From positions 1 to 27,175 of the IMG/VR virus record IMGVR_UViG_3300046370_000031: 27,175 nt of DNA, one strand, 5' to 3'. The first letter of the stretch is position 1, and each line of letters begins with the position of its first letter. The DNA is from a virus. The position numbers and the translations under genes were made by a program. Of this stretch, positions 3 through 27,175 are shown in pieces. The notes beneath the pieces were generated by a model. The model did not search any database and was not told the origin of the DNA. It saw nothing but the letters and a program-made list of their open reading frames with translations.

Positions 3-293
3 TGGCTCAAGTCTGAACGTGTACACGTAGGGTTTAAGTTGATTGACTTAATCATACAGAGTACAGGTATCATCAAGCTTGACACACAGCAGACTGAAAG
101 GAAGAGACGTGCAACCTACGTTGTACCTACTCAAGATACACTTGATTGGATTAAGGCATTCAATGAGTACATGCAAGGCTCACGTCCAAGATACTTACCT
201 TGTGTAATACCACCTAAAGATTGGACATCAGTCAAGGGTGGAGGTTATCATGGACATGACATAGATGAACTACCTATTGTAAGGAGAAAGTAA
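3..293 (+). CDS. gp1: T7-type RNA polymerase, upstream fragment (5' partial)
   Basis: Middle part of a single-subunit phage RNA polymerase that transcribes middle and late phage genes. The frame is open to the left edge, so the true start lies outside the window; the TTG at 39 is not a start, because residues before it (WLKSERVHVGFK) already align with T7 RNAP 'W..ED.IHVGV'. The hallmark PPK.W....GGGY follows (PCVIPPKDW, then KGGGYHG), and the frame ends in PIVRRK-stop at 291-293. By comparison with T7 this point is about residue 435-440, inside the first palm segment, well before the catalytic residues. The remainder of the enzyme is the next gene, in the -1 frame and overlapping by one base. 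Homology is clear; whether the two parts are made as separate chains or joined by frameshifting is not settled by sequence. Confidence 0.9.
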   Translation, partial: WLKSERVHVGFKLIDLIIQSTGIIKLDTQQTERKRRATYVVPTQDTLDWIKAFNEYMQGSRPRYLPCVIPPKDWTSVKGGGYHGHDIDELPIVRRK

Positions 294-295
294 TG
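281..295 (+). promoter_or_regulatory. Shine-Dalgarno and TAATG stop/start at the RNAP split
   Basis: AAGGAG at 281-286 sits six bases before ATG 293-295, and that ATG shares its A with the TAA stop (291-293) of the upstream polymerase frame. This is ideal geometry for coupled termination-reinitiation. The tetranucleotide A-AAG at 287-290 could in principle support -1 slippage into the downstream frame, which is open from 269. However, the Shine-Dalgarno is nearly adjacent to it rather than the roughly 10 or more bases upstream that usually stimulates -1 shifting, so reinitiation is the better reading. Confidence 0.65.
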
Positions 296-1939
296 GGATT
301 AAAGACACACTTAACTAGACTATCTGAACAAGACTTGACTGCTGAGTATGCTTGTCTCAATGCACTACAACAAACTGAGTGGAGGATTAATCAGAACGTA
401 CTCAAAGTTATACGTCAGATGTGGGAGAGTGGGCAAGAGGTAGGTAACTTACCTGCAAGGGAGGACACACCTCTACCTAACTACCACTTCAGTAAAGAAC
501 CTAGTGAGATGAATGAGGAAGAGAAATCTACATTCAGAATATGGTCACGTAAACGTGCTGAGATTTACTCAAGTAATAATCGTAGTGTCAGTAAACGTAT
601 ACAAGTTGAACGTACCTTACAGGTAGCTGAACAGTTCTCTAAGTATGAGAAGTTCTACTACGTATGGCAGAATGATTTCCGTTCACGTAAGTATGCAAGC
701 AGTACATTCCTCACACCTCAGTCAGCTGATTGGAGTAAGAGTCTACTAGAGTTTGGTTATCCTATACCTATTGATAACTGGGATGATGCAAGGTGGCTGT
801 GTATACATGGTGCAAACTTGTATGGTAATGATAAGATAACGTTAGACAAACGTGAAGCATGGGCATGGGAGTATGTAGATGAGGCACATAGGATAGCAGA
901 CAATCCCTTTGATAACCAAGCTTGGCTTGAGGCAGACAAACCATTCCAGTTCCTAGCTTGGTGTTATGAGATGTCAGCCCTAGCTAAGTTTGGTTGGGGT
1001 TATGAGAGTAGGTTACCTGTCTCAGCAGATGGCAGTTGCAACGGATTACAGCACCTCTCAGCTATACTAAGAGATGAGGTAGGGGGTGTAGCTACTAACT
1101 TAATATCTTCTGCTGTACCTCAAGATATTTATACACAGGTAGCTGACCAAGCTATACAACGTATACGAGAGGAGGACACAGAACTAGGTAGGAAATGTTT
1201 AGAGTTTGGTATTGATAGGAAGTTAGCTAAGAGACCTGTTATGATTGTACCTTACTCAGGTACTAAACATGCTTGTCGTGCATACATAGAAGAAGCTATC
1301 AAGGATAAGATAAAGGAAGGTACACCCAACATCTTTGGTGATGACCTATTCAATGTCACTCACTACCTAGCAGGTCACATATGGGACAGCATTAGTGGTG
1401 TGATTGTGTCAGCACGTAAGGTGATGGACTACATTAAGAGTGTAGGAGATGTGTACTCTAACATGGGTCAACACATGGAGTGGGTCACACCTACAGGTTG
1501 GTTAGTTATGCAACAGTATAATGAACTAGAACAGAAGAGGATAAAGACACACATCAATGGTGACATAGTATCTCTATCCTTTCCTAAAGATAAGCAAGAC
1601 AAAGTTAATAAGCAGAGGACAGGGTTAGGCAGTAGTCCTAACTTCATCCATAGTTTAGATGCCTCTGCTATGACACGTACTATTAACGAAGCTACTAAGG
1701 TAGGTATTGTAGACTTTGCTATGGTACATGACAGCTATGGTACACATAGTAGCATGATGCCACAGCTATCTGAGATACTACGTGAACAGTTCGTTAGTAT
1801 GTATGAAGAGCATGATGTTCTTGATGAACTCAGGACTCATGCAATCAAGACTCTAGGTACTGAGGATGTTCCTCTACCACCAAGTAAAGGTAACCTAGAT
1901 ATCCGTAACGTATTGAAATCAGACTATTTCTTTGCTTGA
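293..1939 (+). CDS. gp1: T7-type RNA polymerase, catalytic C-terminal fragment
   Basis: Carries palm and fingers of the single-subunit RNA polymerase. Catalytic aspartate D246 is in ADGSCNGLQH (T7 D537 in FDGSCSGIQH). K313 and Y321 in KRPVMIVPYSG match T7 K631 and Y639 with the same eight-residue spacing. The second metal aspartate is D480 in MVHDSYGT (T7 D812), and the C-terminal foot ends SDYFFA (T7 SDFAFA). The promoter-specificity loop should lie around residues 394-420 and differs from T7, fitting a private promoter set. The first residues align directly after the end of the upstream frame with almost no gap, so nothing appears to be missing between the two pieces. All expected catalytic residues are present, so this is not a decayed gene. 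A frameshifted full-length product remains possible. Confidence 0.93.
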   Translation: MGLKTHLTRLSEQDLTAEYACLNALQQTEWRINQNVLKVIRQMWESGQEVGNLPAREDTPLPNYHFSKEPSEMNEEEKSTFRIWSRKRAEIYSSNNRSVSKRIQVERTLQVAEQFSKYEKFYYVWQNDFRSRKYASSTFLTPQSADWSKSLLEFGYPIPIDNWDDARWLCIHGANLYGNDKITLDKREAWAWEYVDEAHRIADNPFDNQAWLEADKPFQFLAWCYEMSALAKFGWGYESRLPVSADGSCNGLQHLSAILRDEVGGVATNLISSAVPQDIYTQVADQAIQRIREEDTELGRKCLEFGIDRKLAKRPVMIVPYSGTKHACRAYIEEAIKDKIKEGTPNIFGDDLFNVTHYLAGHIWDSISGVIVSARKVMDYIKSVGDVYSNMGQHMEWVTPTGWLVMQQYNELEQKRIKTHINGDIVSLSFPKDKQDKVNKQRTGLGSSPNFIHSLDASAMTRTINEATKVGIVDFAMVHDSYGTHSSMMPQLSEILREQFVSMYEEHDVLDELRTHAIKTLGTEDVPLPPSKGNLDIRNVLKSDYFFA

Positions 1940-1942
1940 TTT

Positions 1943-1960
1943 CTAAAGTTACAACCTAGC
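1943..1960 (+). promoter_or_regulatory. Putative phage RNAP promoter P1 (before SSB)
   Basis: CTAAAGTTACAAC followed by CTAGC lies four bases after the RNAP stop and about 35 bases before the SSB start. The same 13 bases recur at 10213 and 25664, each in a short gap at the start of a functional block. Repetition and placement suggest a promoter for the phage polymerase; no transcription data support this. A short dyad (GCCAgtTGGC, 1959-1968) follows immediately and may be chance. Confidence 0.6.
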
Positions 1961-1995
1961 CAGTTGGCAAAACAAATAGCAATAAGGAGTTATAT

Positions 1996-3204: not shown

Positions 3205-4798
3205 TAGTGAGTTCATAAGACACGAAGAGTGTCCTCACTGTGGCAGTAGTGATGCCAATGCTTTGTATACTGATGGTCATCACTACTGTTTCTCTTGTCA
3301 AGTATCAACAAAAGCACAAGGTAATGAAGGAGTGATAGCAGTGACTACACAGAAGAGTAACTTTGCTTTCCTACCCATTGAGGTAAAGGCATTAAACAAA
3401 AGGAAGATAACTGAGAAGACAGCAAGACACTGGCAGTATGGTGTAGCTATCTATAAGGATAAGAAGGTACATGTAGCTAACTACTATGATAGAGAGGGCA
3501 CACTCCAAGCACAGAAGGTAAGACTTCGTAACAAGGACTTCCTTGTTTTAGGTGACATGAAGAAGATTGGACTATATGGTGAACACCTCTGTCGTGATAA
3601 GGGTAAGATGATTACCATTGTTGAAGGTGAGTTAGATGCTCTGTCATTGAGTCAAGTCTTTGACAACAAGTGGGCAGTTGTAAGTGTTCCCTCAGGTGTA
3701 GACTCTGCTAAGAAAGCTGTGTCTAAATCTCTTGAATGGTTGTGTAACTATGACAGTATTGTTATCATGTTTGATAATGATGAGCATGGTCAAAAAGCAG
3801 CAAAGGAAGTAGCTAGTATACTACCACCTAGTAAGGCTAAGATAGCCCAGCTACCTCTCAAGGATGCCAGTGATATGTTACAGGCAGGAAGACAGGAGGA
3901 ACTCATTGATGCAGTATGGGCAGCAAAGACCTACAGACCTGATGGTATCATAGCAGGTACTGATGTATGGGAACTGATTACTGCTGAAGATGATAAGCAC
4001 TCTGTCTCTTATCCTTATGCAGGTATACAAGAGAAGACAGGTGGTTGTCGTAAGGGTGAGATTGTAACACTCACTGCAGGTAGTGGCATAGGTAAGTCAC
4101 AACTAGCTAGAGAGTTTGCTTACTCCTTCATCATACAGGGACAGACAGTAGGGTACATAGCATTGGAAGAGAATGTTAAACGTACCTCACTTGGTTTGAT
4201 GTCCATTGACTTAAACAAACCACTACACCTACAATCAAATGATGTACCTAAAGAAGAACTAAAGGAAGCTTTTGATAATACAGTTGGTTCAGGTAGGGTG
4301 TACATGTATGACCACTGGGGTTCAACTGACTCTGAAAATCTACTATCTAAAATCAGATACCTAGTCAGAGGATGCCAAGTTGATTATGTTATACTTGACC
4401 ACATTAGTATTGTTGTGAGTGGACTAGAAGGAGGAGATGAAAGACGTATCATTGACAACACTATGACTAAGTTACGTTCACTAGTAGAAGAACTAAACTG
4501 TGGTATGATACTAGTGTCACATCTTAAGAGACCTTCAGGTGACAGAGGACATGAGGATGGAGCACAGACTTCTATGTCACAGCTTAGAGGTAGTGCTGCA
4601 ATAGGTCAGCTGTCTGACATGGTCATAGGATTAGAACGTAACCAACAAGACAAAGACAAACCTAACGTAAGTCAGGTTAGAGTATTGAAGAACAGATGGT
4701 CTGGTGAGACAGGCTTGAGTTGTTCATTAGAGTATAACACAGAGACAGGGAGAATGAATGAGGTACACTTCCCTGATGAAGAAGAACTAGAATTCTAA
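3197..4798 (+). CDS. gp4: Bifunctional primase-helicase (T7 gp4-like)
   Basis: Makes primers and unwinds DNA at the replication fork as a hexamer. Domain order is as in T7 gp4. A zinc-binding domain has C12, C15, C31 and C34 (CPHCG, CFSC). A TOPRIM primase core has E143 in VEGELDA and D193 in FDNDEHG. A RecA-like helicase has Walker A GSGIGKS at 295-301 and a Walker B-like region VILDHISIVV at about 396-405, followed by LVSHLKRP. It ends in acidic EEELEF, resembling the T7 acidic tail with terminal Phe that docks on the polymerase. Length 533 aa against 566 in T7. All zinc ligands are present, so priming activity should be intact. Confidence 0.96.
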   Translation: MNDSEFIRHEECPHCGSSDANALYTDGHHYCFSCQVSTKAQGNEGVIAVTTQKSNFAFLPIEVKALNKRKITEKTARHWQYGVAIYKDKKVHVANYYDREGTLQAQKVRLRNKDFLVLGDMKKIGLYGEHLCRDKGKMITIVEGELDALSLSQVFDNKWAVVSVPSGVDSAKKAVSKSLEWLCNYDSIVIMFDNDEHGQKAAKEVASILPPSKAKIAQLPLKDASDMLQAGRQEELIDAVWAAKTYRPDGIIAGTDVWELITAEDDKHSVSYPYAGIQEKTGGCRKGEIVTLTAGSGIGKSQLAREFAYSFIIQGQTVGYIALEENVKRTSLGLMSIDLNKPLHLQSNDVPKEELKEAFDNTVGSGRVYMYDHWGSTDSENLLSKIRYLVRGCQVDYVILDHISIVVSGLEGGDERRIIDNTMTKLRSLVEELNCGMILVSHLKRPSGDRGHEDGAQTSMSQLRGSAAIGQLSDMVIGLERNQQDKDKPNVSQVRVLKNRWSGETGLSCSLEYNTETGRMNEVHFPDEEELEF

Positions 4799-4824
4799 AC
4801 AGTGCAGAGACACAAGGAGAAACA

Positions 4825-6531
4825 ATGGAATTAATATTTGATATAGAAGCAGACAACTTACTTGATGATGTAACTATTGTGTGGTGCATAGTATGCAGAG
4901 ATAAGAATACAGAAAAGGTATACACCTTTGAACCCCACCAAATAAAAGAAGGGCTTGTGTTCCTATCAAAAGCAGATGCTCTCATTGGTCATAACATTAT
5001 TGACTATGACTTAAGAGTACTCAAGAAGTTGTATGACTTTGACTACACAGGTAAAGTAATAGATACCTTAGTATGTTCAAGAACTATATGGTGTGACGTA
5101 AGAGAGATGGACGTTGAACTAAGTAAGACAAATAACTTTCCTCCTAAACTTATGGGCAGTCATAGCCTTAAGGCATGGGGATACAGATTAGGAGAACTAA
5201 AAGGTGAGTTCAATGTGGGCAGTGAGAGCTTTGGAGAGTACACCCAAGACATGTTACACTACTGTGTACAAGACACGAAGGTTACAGCCAAACTCTATTC
5301 TAAAATTACTGAAAAAAATTTTAGTAAAAAAGCACTAGACTTAGAGACTGAGATACATACTTTACTATTACAGCAACAGGAATATGGTTTTCCTTTTGAT
5401 GTGGAGTCAGCTAAAGAACTATGGTACAAGTTAGTCTCACGTAAATCAGAGCTTGAAGAGGAACTAGTAAATAACTTTGAGCCTACTATCGTAGAGTTAA
5501 AGACTAAGACTAAGACAATACCATTCAATCCTGCTTCACGTATGCAGATAGCAGACAGACTAATGAAGAGAGGATGGAAACCTAAAGCCTTTACTGATAG
5601 TGGTGAGCCTAAAGTTGATGAAGCTGTACTCTCAAGTATTGATATGCCTGAGGCTAAGATGCTTAACGAGTACCTACTCCTTAATAAAAGGTTAGGTCAG
5701 TTAGCTACAGGTAATCAGGCTTGGCTGAAGATGGAGAAGGAAGGTAGACTACATGGACGTGTTAATCATATGGGTGCTGTTACTTCTCGTTGTACTCATT
5801 CCAACCCTAATGTTGCACAAGTTCCTAGTGTTGGTGCACCCTATGGTAAAGAATGTAGGTCACTCTTCTATGCTCCTACTGGCTATAGTCTTCTTGGTGC
5901 TGATGCCAGTGGTCTTGAGCTACGGTGTCTTGCTCACTACATGGCTGCTTATGACGATGGTTCTTATGCTAATACAGTAGTCAACGGTGACATACATACT
6001 ATCAATCAAGAAGCAGCAGGTCTACCTACTAGAAACAATGCCAAGACTTTTATCTACGGATTCTTGTATGGGTCAGGTGATGAGAAGACAGGTAAGATAA
6101 TAGGTAAGGGAGCTAAAGAAGGTAGAGCAATCAAGAAGAAGTTCTTGAAGAAACTACCTGCACTTAAGTATCTCAAGGATGCAGTATCAGAAGCAGCAGA
6201 TGAAAGAGGTTGGGTCAAAGGATTAGATGGACGTATTATACCTGTCAGGCATAGTCATGCTTCACTTAATACTTTGTTACAATCAGCTGGTGCTTTGGTA
6301 TGTAAGACTTGGTATGTCTTCATAGCTAGGGCTATAAAAGAACAAGGACTTGATGCAAAGATTGTAGCATTCATTCACGATGAGGTACAACTACTAGTAA
6401 AGGAAGGACAAGAGGATGACACAGGGAGACTTATTCAAGGATGTATGGGAAGAGTTGAAAGACACTTCAAGTTCAGATGCAAACTTGACAGTGATTACAA
6501 GTATGGACGAAACTGGGCAGACACTCATTGA
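4825..6531 (+). CDS. gp5: DNA polymerase, family A (T7 gp5-like), no thioredoxin-binding insert
   Basis: Replicative polymerase with proofreading. The exonuclease domain opens with FDIEADNLL (D6 and E8, as in T7 D5/E7). The polymerase domain has motif A DASGLELR (D360), motif B RNNAKTFIYG (R403, K407, Y411; T7 R518, K522, Y526) and motif C HDEVQ (D519, E520; T7 D654, E655). It is 568 aa against 704 in T7. Where T7 has its ~75-residue thioredoxin-binding loop before NPSSR, this protein goes almost directly from ELVNNFEPTIVEL to NPASR, so host thioredoxin is unlikely to be the clamp. AAGGAG at 4814-4819 precedes the start. Its last 29 bases overlap the next gene. Confidence 0.96.
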   Translation: MELIFDIEADNLLDDVTIVWCIVCRDKNTEKVYTFEPHQIKEGLVFLSKADALIGHNIIDYDLRVLKKLYDFDYTGKVIDTLVCSRTIWCDVREMDVELSKTNNFPPKLMGSHSLKAWGYRLGELKGEFNVGSESFGEYTQDMLHYCVQDTKVTAKLYSKITEKNFSKKALDLETEIHTLLLQQQEYGFPFDVESAKELWYKLVSRKSELEEELVNNFEPTIVELKTKTKTIPFNPASRMQIADRLMKRGWKPKAFTDSGEPKVDEAVLSSIDMPEAKMLNEYLLLNKRLGQLATGNQAWLKMEKEGRLHGRVNHMGAVTSRCTHSNPNVAQVPSVGAPYGKECRSLFYAPTGYSLLGADASGLELRCLAHYMAAYDDGSYANTVVNGDIHTINQEAAGLPTRNNAKTFIYGFLYGSGDEKTGKIIGKGAKEGRAIKKKFLKKLPALKYLKDAVSEAADERGWVKGLDGRIIPVRHSHASLNTLLQSAGALVCKTWYVFIARAIKEQGLDAKIVAFIHDEVQLLVKEGQEDDTGRLIQGCMGRVERHFKFRCKLDSDYKYGRNWADTH

Positions 6532-7998: not shown

Positions 7999-8318
7999 TG
8001 GATTTTAAAACATATCAAACTAAAGCAAACAGTACAGCTATATATGATGCTAAGTTTTCTATACTGTACCCTACACTTGGACTAGCAGGTGAAGCAGGTG
8101 AGGTAGCAGAAAAAGTTAAGAAGATTATTAGAGATAATAAACAAATCATAGATGAGAAAGAAAACCTAGCAAGAGAACTAGGTGATGTACTTTGGTACAT
8201 AGCTGCTATAGCTAGGGACATAGGTTATGGATTAGATACCATAGCTGAGATGAACTTAGATAAACTAGCAGACCGTAAAGCAAGAGGAACAATACAAGGG
8301 AATGGGGATAACAGATGA
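7998..8318 (+). CDS. mazG: MazG-like nucleotide pyrophosphohydrolase
   Basis: Small all-alpha NTP pyrophosphohydrolase (106 aa, a single MazG domain). The metal-binding pattern is visible: GLAGEAGEVAEKVKKIIRD at about residues 29-47 (the E..E helix) and LARELGDVLWYIAAIA at about 54-69 (the E..D helix). Such phage enzymes hydrolyse non-canonical or canonical (d)NTPs and may shift host nucleotide or alarmone pools; the substrate here is not known. The start shares its A with the DUF3310 stop (TAATG), and the end overlaps the RNR start as ATGA, so the three genes look translationally coupled. Confidence 0.88.
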   Translation: MDFKTYQTKANSTAIYDAKFSILYPTLGLAGEAGEVAEKVKKIIRDNKQIIDEKENLARELGDVLWYIAAIARDIGYGLDTIAEMNLDKLADRKARGTIQGNGDNR

Positions 8319-10216
8319 ACAACTTACTACCAACAGACTATCAAACATTTATAGCTACTAGTAGGTATGCTAGATGGTTAGAAGAAGAGAACAGAAGAGA
8401 GACATGGGATGAAACTGTAGGAAGATACATGTCCTTCTTAAAGAAAAGTACAGATAAAGTAGAGCCTGAAGTATGGGAAGAACTAGAAGAAGCCATACTT
8501 AATCTACAAGTTATGCCTAGTATGAGAGCATTGATGACTGCAGGAGTTGCTGCTGAAAGAGACAACACTTGTATCTACAACTGCTCTTACTTACCTGTTG
8601 ACCACATACGTGCTTTTGATGAAGCTATGTTTATCCTACTATGTGGCACAGGTGTAGGTTTTAGTGTAGAAAGACAATCAATATCTAAACTACCTGACAT
8701 CCCTGCTGACATGCAGCAAAGTAATGATGTTGTATTTGTAGAAGATAGTAAAGAAGGTTGGGCAAAAGCTTTACATAAGTTATTGTCACACCTATACACA
8801 GGTGACATACCTAAGTGGGACATGTCTGCTGTACGTCCTGCAGGTGCTAGACTCAAGACCTTTGGTGGTAGAGCTAGTGGTGCACAACCTTTGATAGACT
8901 TGTTTAACTTTGTAGTAGAGAAGTTCAAAGGTGCTGCAGGTAGAAAGCTTAACTCCATTGAATGCCATGACATCATGTGTAAGATTGGTGAGGTCGTAGT
9001 TGTAGGTGGTGTTAGACGTTCAGCTATGATAAGCTTGTCTAACCTAAGTGATGGACGTATGGCTAAAGCTAAGTCAGGTCAATGGTGGGAGAATGAGGGA
9101 CAGAGAGCACTAGCTAATAACTCTGTTGCCTATACAGACAAGCCTGACATGGAAGGTTTTATGAGAGAGTGGTTGTCTCTAGTAGAATCTAAGTCAGGTG
9201 AGAGAGGTATCTTCTCAAGAGTAGCAGCAGATAAACATGTAGCTATGAATGGACGTAGAGAAACAGGACATGAGTGGGGTACTAATCCTTGTTCAGAGAT
9301 AATCCTAAGACCCTACCAGTTCTGTAACTTAACTGAGGTTGTTGTACGTGCATCAGATGATAAAGAAAGTCTTAAGAAGAAAGTAAGACTAGCTACCATA
9401 CTAGGTACAATACAATCTACCTTTACTCACATGCCTTACTTACGTAAGATATGGCAGGAGAACACAGAGCAAGAGAGATTACTAGGTGTCTCACTTACAG
9501 GTATCATGGATAACATGGTGTTATCTAAGACATTAGATAGTAAGACATGGTTAAAAGAGATGAAGGAACTAGCTATAGATACTAACATCTACTACTCTGC
9601 TATCTTAAAGATACCACAATCAGCTGCTATCACCTGTGTCAAACCTTCAGGTACTGTCTCACAGTTAGTTGATAGTGCCTCAGGTATTCATGCTAGACAT
9701 AGTGACTACTACATTAGAACTGTACGTGGAGATAATAAAGACCCACTAACAATGTTCTTAAAAGATAGTGGTATCCCTGCTGAAGCATGTGTAATGAAGC
9801 CTGACTCTACTACAGTGTTTAGCTTCCCTACTAAATCACCTAGTGGTTCAGTTACACGTAACGTAATGACTGCTATAGAACAGCTAGAGTTGTGGAAACA
9901 CTATGCCTTAAACTGGTGTGAGCATAAACCTTCTGTTACTATCACAGTTAAGGATGCTGAGTGGATGGAAGTAGGAGCATGGGTATACAAGAACTTTGAC
10001 ATATGTTCAGGTATTTCTTTCTTACCTCATAGTGACCACACATATGCTCAAGCACCTTATCAAGACATAACTGAGGAGGAGTATAATGACCTCAAGAAAC
10101 AGATGCCTACTAAAATTGATTGGTCTGCTTTATCGTTATATGAGAAGAAAGATACTACCAACAGTAGCCAAACTTTAGCTTGTACTGCTGATGGTTGTGA
10201 GATAGTTGATATCTAA
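8315..10216 (+). CDS. nrdJ: Class II (adenosylcobalamin-dependent) ribonucleotide reductase
   Basis: Reduces ribonucleotides to deoxyribonucleotides for phage DNA synthesis, needing coenzyme B12 and no oxygen or second subunit. The active-site loop is NPCSEI (C326, E328) with C337 eleven residues on in FCNLTE, matching C408, E410 and C419 of the Lactobacillus leichmannii enzyme. The partner cysteine of the redox pair is C86 or C90 (NTCIYNC). The C-terminal reducing pair is C623/C628 (CTADGC), the same spacing as C731/C736. At 633 aa it is shorter than the 739-aa L. leichmannii monomer. No photosynthesis genes follow it. The stop codon overlaps putative promoter P2. Confidence 0.93.
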   Translation: MNNLLPTDYQTFIATSRYARWLEEENRRETWDETVGRYMSFLKKSTDKVEPEVWEELEEAILNLQVMPSMRALMTAGVAAERDNTCIYNCSYLPVDHIRAFDEAMFILLCGTGVGFSVERQSISKLPDIPADMQQSNDVVFVEDSKEGWAKALHKLLSHLYTGDIPKWDMSAVRPAGARLKTFGGRASGAQPLIDLFNFVVEKFKGAAGRKLNSIECHDIMCKIGEVVVVGGVRRSAMISLSNLSDGRMAKAKSGQWWENEGQRALANNSVAYTDKPDMEGFMREWLSLVESKSGERGIFSRVAADKHVAMNGRRETGHEWGTNPCSEIILRPYQFCNLTEVVVRASDDKESLKKKVRLATILGTIQSTFTHMPYLRKIWQENTEQERLLGVSLTGIMDNMVLSKTLDSKTWLKEMKELAIDTNIYYSAILKIPQSAAITCVKPSGTVSQLVDSASGIHARHSDYYIRTVRGDNKDPLTMFLKDSGIPAEACVMKPDSTTVFSFPTKSPSGSVTRNVMTAIEQLELWKHYALNWCEHKPSVTITVKDAEWMEVGAWVYKNFDICSGISFLPHSDHTYAQAPYQDITEEEYNDLKKQMPTKIDWSALSLYEKKDTTNSSQTLACTADGCEIVDI

Positions 10217-10230
10217 AGTTACAACATTAG
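10213..10230 (+). promoter_or_regulatory. Putative phage RNAP promoter P2 (before structural genes)
   Basis: CTAAAGTTACAACATTAG begins at the last base of the RNR isoleucine codon and includes the TAA stop. The 13-base core is identical to that at 1943 and 25664, and it extends as ATTA in common with P3. It opens the structural block; the next ATG is 16 bases on. This copy is an imperfect palindrome (CTAA-a-GTT-ac-AAC-a-TTAG). Confidence 0.62.
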
Positions 10231-10245
10231 CGAAAGTTTGCATAC

Positions 10246-10666: not shown

Positions 10667-11128
10667 ATGGGAGCACCAGTTAAAAAGGTTAAGAAGGTTG
10701 TTAAGAAAGTAACTAAACCAGTTAAGAAGATTGTAAAAAAAGCTGAAAAAACATTTGTAGAACCTTTAGAAAAACCAGTTAAAAAGATTGTAAAAGAAGT
10801 AAAAGACTTACCTAAAGATATAGAGAAAAAAGTAATAGAACCTTTAGAAAAACCAGTTAAGAAAGTGGTTAAGAAAGTTACTAAACCTATTAAGAAAATA
10901 GTAAGCAAACCTAAACCCAAACCTGCTCCTGCTCCTGCTCCAAAACCTGAAGCTAAAACAGCTGCTCCTAGAGAACAAGGAGAAGAAGTAGAAACTGTAA
11001 CAACAGGTGAAGCTAAGAAGCTAAGACGAGTACGTAAAGGTAAGAAACAATTAAGAACAGACCTTAAAATACAACCTACAAAAGAAATAGCTGGTAAAGG
11101 CTCTGGACTAAACATACCAAAAGGATAA
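10667..11128 (+). CDS. gp7.3: Lysine-rich tail assembly protein (T7 gp7.3-like)
   Basis: A 153-aa strongly basic, repetitive protein. Its start, MGAPVKKVKKVVKKVTKPVK, resembles T7 gp7.3 (MGKKVKKAVKKVTKSVKK), a minor virion protein needed for tail assembly/adsorption. Inside are repeats of KPVKKIV, including two copies of IEPLEKPVKK-like sequence 26 residues apart, then a Pro-Ala-Lys segment (KPKPAPAPAPKP), an acidic patch and the C-terminus LRTDL...GSGLNIPKG. It is half again as long as the 99-aa T7 protein because of the repeats. The long antisense frame opposite is an artefact of the lysine codons. Confidence 0.75.
   Translation: MGAPVKKVKKVVKKVTKPVKKIVKKAEKTFVEPLEKPVKKIVKEVKDLPKDIEKKVIEPLEKPVKKVVKKVTKPIKKIVSKPKPKPAPAPAPKPEAKTAAPREQGEEVETVTTGEAKKLRRVRKGKKQLRTDLKIQPTKEIAGKGSGLNIPKG
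10758..10860 (+). repeat. 25-bp perfect direct repeat, two copies 78 bp apart
   Basis: The 25 bases at 10758-10782 recur exactly at 10836-10860; each starts TAGAACCTTTAG and ends CCAGTTAA. The offset is 26 whole codons, so the protein repeats (EPLEKPVKK). A partial third copy of the second half (CCAGTTAAGAAGATTGTAAA) lies at about 10719. It looks like an in-frame duplication within the gp7.3-like gene. Confidence 0.85.
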
Positions 11129-25300: not shown

Positions 25301-25661
25301 TCTGATGTATACAGCTAGAGTACATTTAAATGCTGCTGGACGTAGTGATGCTAATGAGTATGTAGCAGAACGCATGGAAACAGGCAACCTACTTAAGGGT
25401 GCTGTGGCTCAAATAGGAATGACTTCTATATTTAGTTATATAGCTCAGTTAAGTTCAGGGGTACTAAATGGTAACTCCTATGCTATAACTCCTCCTATTG
25501 CTTCTTTGTTAGTTAATGGAGGTTCAACTATTAATAACTTATTTGATGACCAAGATGCTACAGAATCTGAATGGAGAAAAGCTTTAAGGATATTTCCTTA
25601 TCAATCTTTATATGGAGCTAGGCAGATAATAAATGCTACAGCTAATGAATTTGCTAACTAA
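22326..25661 (+). CDS. gp16: Internal virion protein D (T7 gp16-like), without N-terminal transglycosylase
   Basis: Large core protein (1111 aa; T7 gp16 has 1318) ejected first into the cell envelope. In T7 the first ~150 residues are a lytic transglycosylase; here the N-terminus (MSQEMLLKDLGLESVVAKDS...) shows no such motif. FWESVGIGYKEDSL at about 40-53 and the following text fit the post-SLT body of gp16. Two hydrophobic Gly/Ala segments, about 155-180 (WAIIAGTTALASA) and 221-242 (VLIAGGAGAVIGGG), could be membrane-active. The C-terminal part has the conserved GMSGMSALMELTNVMMEYSF and FQFLNFTFSSMEQQTQR. AAGGAAA at 22314-22320 precedes the start. Confidence 0.9.
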   Translation: MSQEMLLKDLGLESVVAKDSTIPIVNTVQESVLLNQQRKMAEGKEIQGFWESVGIGYKEDSLVSAISDHADKLEVVNDVPVTNFTPELIKELTDGLQTDAAIDVLENASAYGFNTAMKQRKINLATQKNLADLDAAGWKGTTGRIFAMMFDPAEWAIIAGTTALASATTTPIGGAAALTAGVVKRAYDVKRAVKIGALVGASENAAFEAIRNDVRYNIDFNDVLIAGGAGAVIGGGLNAGITAFRKAGQRATIDNKFRLGQKLTPSESLFYDAFNEGTLANKIIDKELSDPSFTEAGRTFNTNRHTTPPTLEEMQLTPKQAGYSLFGLRKLISVGARMMNSPLGSVRWAGNTLGMNVAGFSNSSRVTNAGSVTEVMGRLQGQYRAQLAGILPRERSKFIKRTGLTEEEFNTALSRYLRGIDTNVAPEVTKIGEIARKVLDDLGYLGVKADVVGLTKKQIDDNRNYLTRLFNDLKVKNVRDKFDDEVIVDLIEDAIRRGQPNIEEQVLKTLGKRGKTKGKTDEELFDAVNDYIRKFARGYTKSIISAKFRKSGITDTNPMVREDLEAALKGEFAEEDIDDIIDLVTQSKTPKSFKRAQSRVILSEGAVIKATNKNGDIEDLRFTDLLEEDGEQLVNSYIFQMSGAIGLARNGINTNVKGTDFSELVTGKILKDIDGRNLTKDQFQAELDAVQFMYDGITGRLGNRSETQTVHDLNVALRAWSFAVNMGMSGMSALMELTNVMMEYSFMTLLKSVPQYKQLMTSLSTADADPNLVQELVQLFGLGAEVDLGKWTAVTRFDSEDVGATITTATGNKIGRATEKFAYASQKHVAFLSGLTGVTQTLRRMSMINFTNEFALAAAKGKLPFSKIKRQQLGISDEMGARIVQTLNNRNIVTKNPNGTVKNLNIEKWDEDVREAFANIGHRDARTNVQESDLSTSNRLLKSTQIGRSMFQFLNFTFSSMEQQTQRLAVRTMNGDAGAVAKLFTAAMGMGALMYTARVHLNAAGRSDANEYVAERMETGNLLKGAVAQIGMTSIFSYIAQLSSGVLNGNSYAITPPIASLLVNGGSTINNLFDDQDATESEWRKALRIFPYQSLYGARQIINATANEFAN

Positions 25662-25663
25662 AC

Positions 25664-25681
25664 CTAAAGTTACAACATTAA
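25664..25681 (+). promoter_or_regulatory. Putative phage RNAP promoter P3 (before the tail fibre)
   Basis: CTAAAGTTACAACATTAA lies three bases after the gp16-like stop and 15 bases before the tail fibre ATG. The core equals P1 and P2. Placement before gene 17 parallels the T7 phi17 promoter. AACGAGGAA immediately afterwards is the ribosome binding site. Confidence 0.62.
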
Positions 25682-25696
25682 TAACGAGGAATACAA

Positions 25697-27175
25697 ATGC
25701 CATTATCATATCAAAACTACACTGGGGATAACGTTACAACTACGTTTAACATCCCCTTTACGTACACTGCGACTAGTGAGATAAGTGTTACAGTTGATGG
25801 GGTAGCTCAAACAGGTTTGACTTTCCCTTCATCTTCTCAGGTACAATTAACCAGTGCTCCTGCTAGTAGTACTGTCGTACAAGTTAGACGTACAACAGAC
25901 TTAACATCAAGAGCAGTAGACTTTGCATCTGGTTCAGTTCTTACTGAAGAAGACTTAGACAATGCTAACATACAAATCTTTCACTCATCGCAAGAAGCTG
26001 TTGACTTAACTGACGATACTATCCAAGAAGATATAGATAGTAAATGGGATGCAGAAAGCAAAGTCATTAAGAATGTAGCTAATCCTACAAATGCTCAAGA
26101 TGCTGCAACAAAGGATTACCTAGAAAATACTTGGTTAACTCCTGCTGATAAAGCTCAGTTAAATTCTTTGAATACAACTAACCTTAACACTGTTGCAACT
26201 AACATTTCAGATGTTAATGATGTGGCAGCTGATGAAGCTGACATAGGAATAGTAGCAACTAGCATAACTGATGTAAATACATTAGCTCCTGTTGTAACAG
26301 ATATAGCAACACTTGCTGACATAACAGATGGTACTGTTGCTACTAATGCTATACAAACTGTAGCAGATATACAAGGTAACGTAACTACAGTTGCAGGTAT
26401 AGAAAATGATGTGACTACAGTTGCAGGTCAAACAACTAATTTACAGAATGTAACAGATAACTTAACTGCAATACAAAATGCTAGTACAAATGCAACAAAT
26501 GCAGCACAATCTGCTACTGATGCCCAAACTGCTCAAGGTTTAGCAGAGGATGCACAAGCAGCAGCAGAAGCTGCCCTTGATAATTTTGATGATAGATTTT
26601 TAGGAGCAAAAGCAACAGACCCAGTATTAGACAATGATGGTAATGCTTTACTTGATGGTGCTTTGTACTTTGACACAACTAACGACATAATGAAAGTGTA
26701 TGATTTAACCAATACAACTTGGAGACAGTTAACACTTACATCAGCCAATCAAGCAAATGTAAATACAGTTGCAGGGCAAATAAGTCCTACTAATAATATA
26801 GCTATAGTAGCAGGGGATAGTGCTGATATAGGCACAGTAGCAGGATTGAGTACAGATATTCAAGCTCTAGCTGATATAGAAGATGGAACAACTGCAACTA
26901 ATGCAATATCAAATGTTGGTGGTTCTATAGCCAACGTAAACACAGTGGCAAGCAACCTTGCTTCAGTAAATAACTTTGGTGAAGTTTATCGTATTGCATC
27001 TTCTGCACCAACTACATCATTAGATATAGGTGACTTATACTTTGATACTACAGCTAATGAGTTAAAGGTATACAAGTCAAGTGGTTGGGCAGCAGCAGGT
27101 TCTACAGTTAACGGAACTTCAGCTAGGTTTCACTATGATATATCAGGAACTCCAACAAGTGTGACTGGAGCAGAT
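25697..27175 (+). CDS. gp17: Tail fibre protein (T7 gp17-like), 3' partial
   Basis: Host-recognition fibre; the frame is open for 493 codons to the right edge. The N-terminal ~150 residues are the conserved T7-type tail-attachment domain: MPLSYQNYTGDN, FNIPFTYTATSEISVTVDG, VQVRRTTDLTSRAVDF, and IFHSSQEAVDLTDDTI. Next comes a long repetitive rod of the type VATNISDVNDVA / NVNTVAG, typical of marine phage fibres, with an Ala/Gln-rich helix (ATDAQTAQGLAEDAQAAAEAA) and two LYFDTT...KVY...W modules at residues 323 and 447. A longer unit, LADI-x-DGT-x-ATNAI, occurs at 206 and 391. The receptor-binding tip lies outside the window. Confidence 0.93.
   Translation, partial: MPLSYQNYTGDNVTTTFNIPFTYTATSEISVTVDGVAQTGLTFPSSSQVQLTSAPASSTVVQVRRTTDLTSRAVDFASGSVLTEEDLDNANIQIFHSSQEAVDLTDDTIQEDIDSKWDAESKVIKNVANPTNAQDAATKDYLENTWLTPADKAQLNSLNTTNLNTVATNISDVNDVAADEADIGIVATSITDVNTLAPVVTDIATLADITDGTVATNAIQTVADIQGNVTTVAGIENDVTTVAGQTTNLQNVTDNLTAIQNASTNATNAAQSATDAQTAQGLAEDAQAAAEAALDNFDDRFLGAKATDPVLDNDGNALLDGALYFDTTNDIMKVYDLTNTTWRQLTLTSANQANVNTVAGQISPTNNIAIVAGDSADIGTVAGLSTDIQALADIEDGTTATNAISNVGGSIANVNTVASNLASVNNFGEVYRIASSAPTTSLDIGDLYFDTTANELKVYKSSGWAAAGSTVNGTSARFHYDISGTPTSVTGAD

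What the first reader, a model, noticed from the sequence alone, without database searches (positions are those of the whole stretch)
3..1939. T7-type RNA polymerase split into two genes at a TAATG overlap
The polymerase coding sequence is interrupted by a stop in frame 0 and resumes in the -1 frame with an ATG that overlaps the stop. AAGGAG is placed exactly six bases before that ATG. The two halves align to T7 RNAP with almost no gap at the break (about T7 residue 435-440, within the first palm segment), and all catalytic residues in the second half are intact. An assembly indel would not be expected to create an ideal stop/start plus Shine-Dalgarno. The likely meaning is a two-chain single-subunit-type polymerase, which could make polymerase assembly a regulated step; a programmed -1 shift at A-AAG (287-290) is the alternative. 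I cannot say whether this exact break has been described.
Basis: partly seen in the sequence, partly recalled or inferred. Interest (0 to 1): 0.72.

Follow-up and report, generated by a model that had tools for sequence, protein, structure and literature searches.

The report
Conserved two-chain phage RNA polymerase
A large group of uncultured, mostly marine viruses of bacteria makes its T7-type RNA polymerase as two separate, translationally linked proteins instead of one, broken in the same surface loop where laboratory scientists have split T7 polymerase, which shows that this 'single-subunit' enzyme has become a two-part enzyme more than once in nature.

Summary
The split is real, old and under selection. 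The N gene ends TAA at 291-293, the C gene starts ATG at 293, and AAGGAG (281-286) lies six bases before it. The same break occurs in 222 fetched loci (94 distinct 500-bp junctions, 52 distinct junction strings), down to 56% C-chain identity, with no fused member in the clade. Stop/start arrangements span all three relative frames, always with a Shine-Dalgarno-like word, so neither an assembly indel nor a conserved frameshift or readthrough explains it. Both chains are complete and under purifying selection. That is the loop where T7 RNAP has been split by engineers (301/302). Best reading: one mRNA, termination-reinitiation, non-covalent two-chain polymerase. Precedents: N4 RNAPII (T7 ~453) and some pelagiphages ('fragmented' RNAP, same loop). 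Tree tests make this an independent origin. Unexpected: promoter-like motifs bracket the gene pair; an inverted copy over the first N codons co-varies with the copy behind the C gene. No protein, complex or activity has been shown.

The parts
3..293 (+). 3' part (last 96 codons and TAA stop) of the N-chain gene of a T7-type RNA polymerase; the rest lies beyond the contig end. Full gene in the near-identical contig L002 3204-4001: 265 aa, TTG start with AAAGGGAG upstream
   Evidence: Pfam RPOL_N 1.9e-11 and phrog_414 positions 2-266
281..286 (+). Shine-Dalgarno-like AAGGAG inside the end of the N gene, six bases before the C-gene ATG
   Evidence: sequence; conserved across the clade and above same-frame controls
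291..295 (+). TAATG overlap of N-gene stop (291-293) and C-gene start (293-295)
   Evidence: several stop/start arrangements in all three frames in relatives
293..1939 (+). C-chain gene of the RNA polymerase, 548 aa: thumb, palm, fingers, specificity loop, all catalytic residues
   Evidence: Pfam RNA_pol 9.4e-103; phrog_414 positions 271-816; catalytic residues; model pLDDT 91.7 superposes on T7 299-883
1940..1961 (+). promoter-like motif TTTCTAAAGTTACAACCTAGCC directly behind the polymerase gene pair, before the SSB gene; candidate promoter of this polymerase
10210..10231 (+). second intergenic copy of the motif (TATCTAAAGTTACAACATTAGC), behind the ribonucleotide reductase gene and before the structural region
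25661..25676 (+). third intergenic copy (AACCTAAAGTTACAAC), before the tail-fibre-like gene at 25697
   Evidence: equivalent position in G005

Best explanation
The phage makes its T7-type RNA polymerase as two polypeptides from one mRNA. Ribosomes finishing the N gene (promoter-contact/N-terminal domain, ~265 aa) stop at a codon that overlaps or nearly touches the start of the C gene (thumb-palm-fingers with all catalytic residues, 548 aa) and restart there, helped by an internal Shine-Dalgarno sequence; this coupling gives near-matched amounts of both chains. The chains then assemble non-covalently into one working polymerase, because the break lies in a loop between the N-terminal domain and the thumb. 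Shown here: conserved break, complete and constrained chains, conserved SD, coupling-type junctions in all frames, folds of both halves. Inferred: reinitiation, assembly, activity.
For: Same break in 222 fetched loci, 94 distinct 500-bp junctions, down to 56% identity, none fused. The stop/start arrangements (ATGA, TAATG, TAA or TGA-GTT-ATG, TAG-T-ATG, TAA-G-ATG, TAA-GT-ATG, plus one TTGA) all keep a start within -1 to +6 nt of the stop. SD conserved. N chain 257-273 aa with its own conserved start and purine-rich leader, C chain 546-554 aa. Median dN/dS 0.15 (N) and 0.12 (C) among 22 representatives. Together they cover phrog_414 2-266 and 271-816 with nothing missing. N model matches the T7 N-terminal domain (Z 20.2, 228 residues), C model matches T7 299-882 (Z 46.2, 507 residues). 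Precedents: engineered T7 RNAP split at 301/302 works when its halves are brought together (PMC13304687); N4 RNAPII is a natural heterodimer (PMC4496689); in pelagiphage HTVC025P two further ORFs lie between the halves, so fusion by recoding is implausible there.
Against: No transcript, protein, complex or activity data. The last ~19 residues of the N chain are not confidently modelled alone (pLDDT <50) and the two chains were not co-folded. The engineered 301/302 split used fused light-driven dimerisers, so unaided assembly at this site is not proven for T7.
Confidence: 0.88

Rival explanations
1. Recoding: a share of ribosomes shifts frame (-1 at A-AAG, 287-290) or reads through the stop, giving a fused full-length polymerase; the split products are secondary.
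For: In the window's own subclade the last codon AAG preceded by A could slip to AAA, and an upstream SD can stimulate -1 shifts (general knowledge).
Against: The relation of the two frames is -1, 0 or +1 in different members, so three different recoding events would be needed; the heptamer here is G AGA AAG, not X XXY YYZ; most ATGA-class members end in CGC AAA or CGC AGA; no stable RNA structure around the junction (z 0.53).
Confidence: 0.05
2. Assembly or sequencing indel in an otherwise single gene.
For: A one-base indel near 287-293 would by itself split or join the frames.
Against: The same break is in many independent assemblies and at 56-100% identity with different sequences and frames; in-frame stop members cannot come from an indel; SD and start are conserved.
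Confidence: 0.005
3. Degenerating polymerase gene: the split inactivates it and the phage relies on host RNA polymerase.
For: Gene splits often mark decay (general knowledge); no tool result supports it here.
Against: Low dN/dS in both halves, catalytic residues conserved, constant chain lengths, promoter-like motifs that co-vary with clade.
Confidence: 0.02
4. Two chains, but made or used unequally: the N chain (promoter-contact part) is limiting or has a second role, so assembly is a control step in the infection programme.
For: Start codons differ (TTG/ATG for N, ATG for C), the N start is overlaid by an inverted promoter-like element, and in T7 the two halves contribute different promoter contacts (general knowledge).
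Against: The tightly coupled junction argues for matched synthesis; nothing here measures amounts.
Confidence: 0.15

Closest known systems
Split RNAP of pelagiphages of the Fussvirus/Stopavirus group (HTVC025P, HTVC041P, Eyrgjafa EXVC018P, Gjalp EXVC020P, MedDCM S30-C28); noted as 'fragmented into two parts' by Chen et al. 2019 (PMC6811365)
   Same: T7-type polymerase in two genes, broken in the same loop between N-terminal domain and thumb (T7 ~293 there, ~300 here); in most of them overlapping genes
   Different: Separate clade: holding all split polymerases together is rejected (p-AU 2e-48) and fused HTVC011P is sister to them; overlaps of 20-32 nt or two inserted ORFs instead of the 1-4 nt overlaps or short gaps here; insertion in the loop
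Phage N4 RNA polymerase II (gp15 + gp16)
   Same: Natural two-chain member of the T7-type family, purified heterodimer (PMC4496689)
   Different: Break at T7 453/454, behind the DxxGR motif (PDB 6dt7_B aligns only with C-chain 163-548); truncated N-terminal domain; middle polymerase that uses the ssDNA-binding gp2; remote in the tree
Engineered split T7 RNA polymerase (seams of PMC4299498; split at 301/302 in PMC13304687)
   Same: Break at essentially the same residue; two fragments reconstitute an active enzyme
   Different: Artificial; the 301/302 version carries fused light-controlled dimerisers
Phage T7 RNA polymerase and fused relatives (L094-L104, L260)
   Same: Same fold, catalytic residues and, for T7, gene neighbourhood (RNAP, SSB, endonuclease I, primase-helicase, DNA polymerase)
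   Different: One chain; L094-L104 and L260 are the sister lineage of the split clade at 41-46% C-chain identity

Membership tests
Single-subunit (T7-type) RNA polymerase family | RPOL_N and RNA_pol domains in order | tested here: met
   PF14700 1.9e-11 on N chain, PF00940 9.4e-103 on C chain; phrog_414 covered 2-266 and 271-816
Single-subunit (T7-type) RNA polymerase family | Catalytic residues of motifs A, B, C and DxxGR arginine | tested here: met
   Equivalents of R425, D537, R627, K631, Y639, H811, D812 all present in the C chain
Single-subunit (T7-type) RNA polymerase family | T7 RNAP fold | tested here: met
   C model Z 46.2 over 507 residues, N model Z 20.2 over 228 residues
Single-subunit (T7-type) RNA polymerase family | One polypeptide chain | tested here: not met
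   Two ORFs with a conserved stop/start across the clade; protein not seen
N4 RNAPII-type heterodimer | Break between DxxGR motif and palm motif A (T7 ~453) | tested here: not met
   Break at T7 299-301
N4 RNAPII-type heterodimer | Purified as a complex of two chains | not testable with these tools
   needs protein
Split RNAP of Fussvirus/Stopavirus pelagiphages | Break in the loop between N-terminal domain and thumb | tested here: met
   T7 ~293 there and ~300 here
Split RNAP of Fussvirus/Stopavirus pelagiphages | Common descent of the split | tested here: not met
   Two separate clades, each with a fused sister; AU test p 2e-48 (long branches are a caveat)
Programmed ribosomal frameshift gene | Conserved frame relation and slippery sequence | tested here: not met
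   Frames 0, +1, -1 in different members; no X XXY YYZ heptamer; no structure
Translationally coupled gene pair (termination-reinitiation) | Stop and start overlapping or within a few nt, with internal SD | tested here: met
Translationally coupled gene pair (termination-reinitiation) | C-gene translation depends on N-gene translation | not testable with these tools
   needs expression experiment

The most novel reading that the evidence does not exclude
The two-chain polymerase of this clade is also self-regulated by an inverted copy of its own promoter laid over the first codons of its N gene: the enzyme binds there, pointing leftward, and blocks or makes antisense RNA against its own leader and the early genes, so that both assembly of two chains and autogenous repression set the polymerase level. 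The promoter, this inverted copy and the polymerase co-evolve across the clade.
Probability: 0.3. Interest if true: 0.75.

Novelty: new variant of a known kind. Interest (0 to 1): 0.58.

Why it matters
T7 RNA polymerase is the textbook single-subunit enzyme and a workhorse of biotechnology. Here the same structural seam that engineers cut has been cut by evolution at least twice, and kept across a diverse phage clade with a junction that keeps changing sequence and frame but never loses its stop/start coupling. It offers many natural, already optimised two-part polymerases with distinct promoters, and makes the question 'what does a phage gain from a two-chain polymerase' directly testable against fused sister lineages.

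Tried and rejected
Frameshift by slippery site or RNA structure: rejected. Common origin with the pelagiphage split: rejected by AU test, with the caveat of long branches. A cultured phage of this clade: none found (all phage records under 60% identity). Bacterial genome relatives: all those that could be scored are fused and at most 46% identical. T7 split-seam numbers in the text of PMC4299498: not given except 67, 179 and 601, so the 301/302 site is cited from PMC13304687. First promoter covariation script missed the shorter N chains; redone.

Full report
Observation. The window is an uncultured phage fragment of 27,175 bases with T7-like gene order. Its left end cuts a T7-type RNA polymerase. 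The N ORF ends TAA at 291-293, and ATG 293-295 opens a 548-aa ORF to 1939; AAGGAG (281-286) sits six bases before it. The near-identical contig behind L002 shows the full N gene: 265 aa, TTG start, AAAGGGAG leader.

Where the break is. P0002 residue 7 aligns with T7 305; multiple alignment gives 300/301 and structural superposition puts C-chain residue 1 on T7 299. So the break separates the N-terminal domain from the thumb (domain borders from general knowledge of T7 RNAP). All catalytic residues, including the DxxGR arginine, are on the C chain.

It is not an artefact. Scans of IMG/VR gave 222 split loci, 94 distinct 500-bp junctions and 47 clusters at 95% identity (several loci are views of one contig). 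C-chain identity to the window runs from 100% down to 56%, and no member of this clade is fused. Fused relatives begin at 41-46% (L094-L104, L260). Chain lengths are nearly constant (N 257-273 aa, mostly 265 or 257; C 546-554 aa). Median dN/dS is 0.15 (N) and 0.12 (C) among 22 representatives.

The junction is a coupling site, not a recoding site. There are 52 distinct junction strings with stop/start offsets -1 (ATGA), +2 (TAATG), +4, +5 and +6, which puts the C frame at -1, +1 or 0 relative to N. An in-frame stop, a +1 and a -1 relation cannot share one frameshift or readthrough mechanism. What is conserved is a start codon within a few bases of the stop and a Shine-Dalgarno word: every distinct junction has an anti-SD match of 4 or more, against 28.5% of same-frame control windows, and the Arg codon before it is AGG in 38 of 42 representatives against 514 of 2184 Arg codons overall. 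No RNA structure stands out. That overlapping ATGA/TAATG pairs mark termination-reinitiation is general knowledge, not tested here.

Folds. AlphaFold2 models of the separate chains match the two parts of T7 RNAP: C chain pLDDT 91.7, Z 46.2 over 507 residues; N chain pLDDT 83.0, Z 20.2 over 228 residues. The last ~19 residues of the N chain are not confident alone. phrog_414 is covered 2-266 by N and 271-816 by C, so nothing is missing.

Origins. In a tree of 67 C-chain homologues the window's split clade is one group (100/100) whose sister is a fused lineage (98/97). The split pelagiphages (HTVC025P, HTVC041P, Eyrgjafa, S30-C28) form another group (100/98) beside fused HTVC011P. One common split is rejected (p-AU 2e-48); long branches are a caveat. 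N4 RNAPII, broken at T7 453/454, is a third case. So the T7-type enzyme appears to have become two-chained at least three times, twice in the same loop.

What is known. N4 RNAPII is a purified heterodimer (PMC4496689). Chen et al. 2019 noted in one passage that the RNAP of HTVC019Pvirus group III phages, except HTVC011P, is fragmented into two parts, with no unsplit reads for their phage (PMC6811365); I located such breaks at T7 ~293, with two extra ORFs between the halves in HTVC025P. T7 RNAP has been split by engineers in five seams (PMC4299498) and at 301/302, a flexible loop, with function on light-driven dimerisation (PMC13304687). I found no description of the present clade's split in the papers held; unheld papers may contain one.

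Unexpected neighbour. Directly behind the C gene lies TTTCTAAAGTTACAACCTAGCC (1940-1961). Further + strand copies lie between genes, behind the reductase gene (10210) and before the tail-fibre-like gene (25661), and in early regions of near-complete relatives. The general form CTAAASTNNNNNNNTWGCC, with TATAG in some members (L185 TTTCTAAAGTTGACCTATAGCCC), resembles T7-type promoters (comparison from general knowledge). In each of the eight longer contigs examined one copy is inverted and lies over the first codons of the N gene. The inverted and the downstream copy match within a genome (mean 0.95 mismatches of 15, 40 representatives) far better than between genomes (3.45; 0 of 10,000 permutations as low, relatedness not removed), including changed cores such as CTAAACTGTACCT and CTAAAGTTCCCCT. 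The Leu codon there is TTA in 40 of 40 representatives against 155 of 853 Leu codons. Fused relatives lack it at these places. A shared binder, most simply this polymerase, would explain the co-variation; pairing of the two copies in RNA is not excluded.

Mechanism. Most likely: one mRNA, coupled translation of two chains, non-covalent assembly into one promoter-specific polymerase that transcribes from the motif. Shown: conservation, constraint, junction design, folds. Inferred: reinitiation, assembly, activity, promoter use, any regulation.

Verdict. Real, conserved, apparently independent instance of a known but rare kind (two-chain T7-type polymerase) with a distinct break and coupling design. 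Interest 0.58.

Noticed in passing
window 1940-1961, 10210-10231, 25661-25676; L002 3206-3222 (inverted copy over N-gene start): Promoter-like motif in intergenic + strand copies, plus one inverted copy over the first codons of the polymerase N gene in the examined genomes of the clade; inverted and downstream copies co-vary between subclades.
   Followed up: partly
L048 (C chain 4291-5934 and following 45 bases): N chain and inverted motif of one subclade but downstream motif (TTCTAACCTGTACCTATAGCC) of another: a natural recombinant or a chimeric assembly.
   Followed up: no
L022/L039 C chain: One contig has a C chain shortened to 479 aa by a one-base length change near its end, unlike all relatives; likely an assembly error or a broken copy.
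   Followed up: no
L110 1420-1980 (HTVC025P): The two polymerase halves of HTVC025P are separated by two small ORFs, the first flanked by near-identical copies of AAAAATCTATAGG-AAAAAATATGA, suggesting a duplication or insertion footprint.
   Followed up: no
L113 518-3160 (HTVC011P) against L111 1414-1445 (HTVC041P): Fused HTVC011P and split HTVC041P look homologous across the break, so split and fused states may differ only by small indels in close relatives.
   Followed up: partly
window 8315-10216: B12-dependent ribonucleotide reductase closest (68-70%) to those of cultured roseobacter phages (CRP-4, CRP-5, Lentibacter ICBM2), hinting at an alphaproteobacterial host; the portal is nearest to Rhizobium phages and other Autographiviridae.
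   Followed up: no
window 10667-11128: Lys/Pro/Val-rich protein of imperfect repeats (KKIVKK.. / EPLEKPVKK) between the reductase and the portal gene; function unknown.
   Followed up: no
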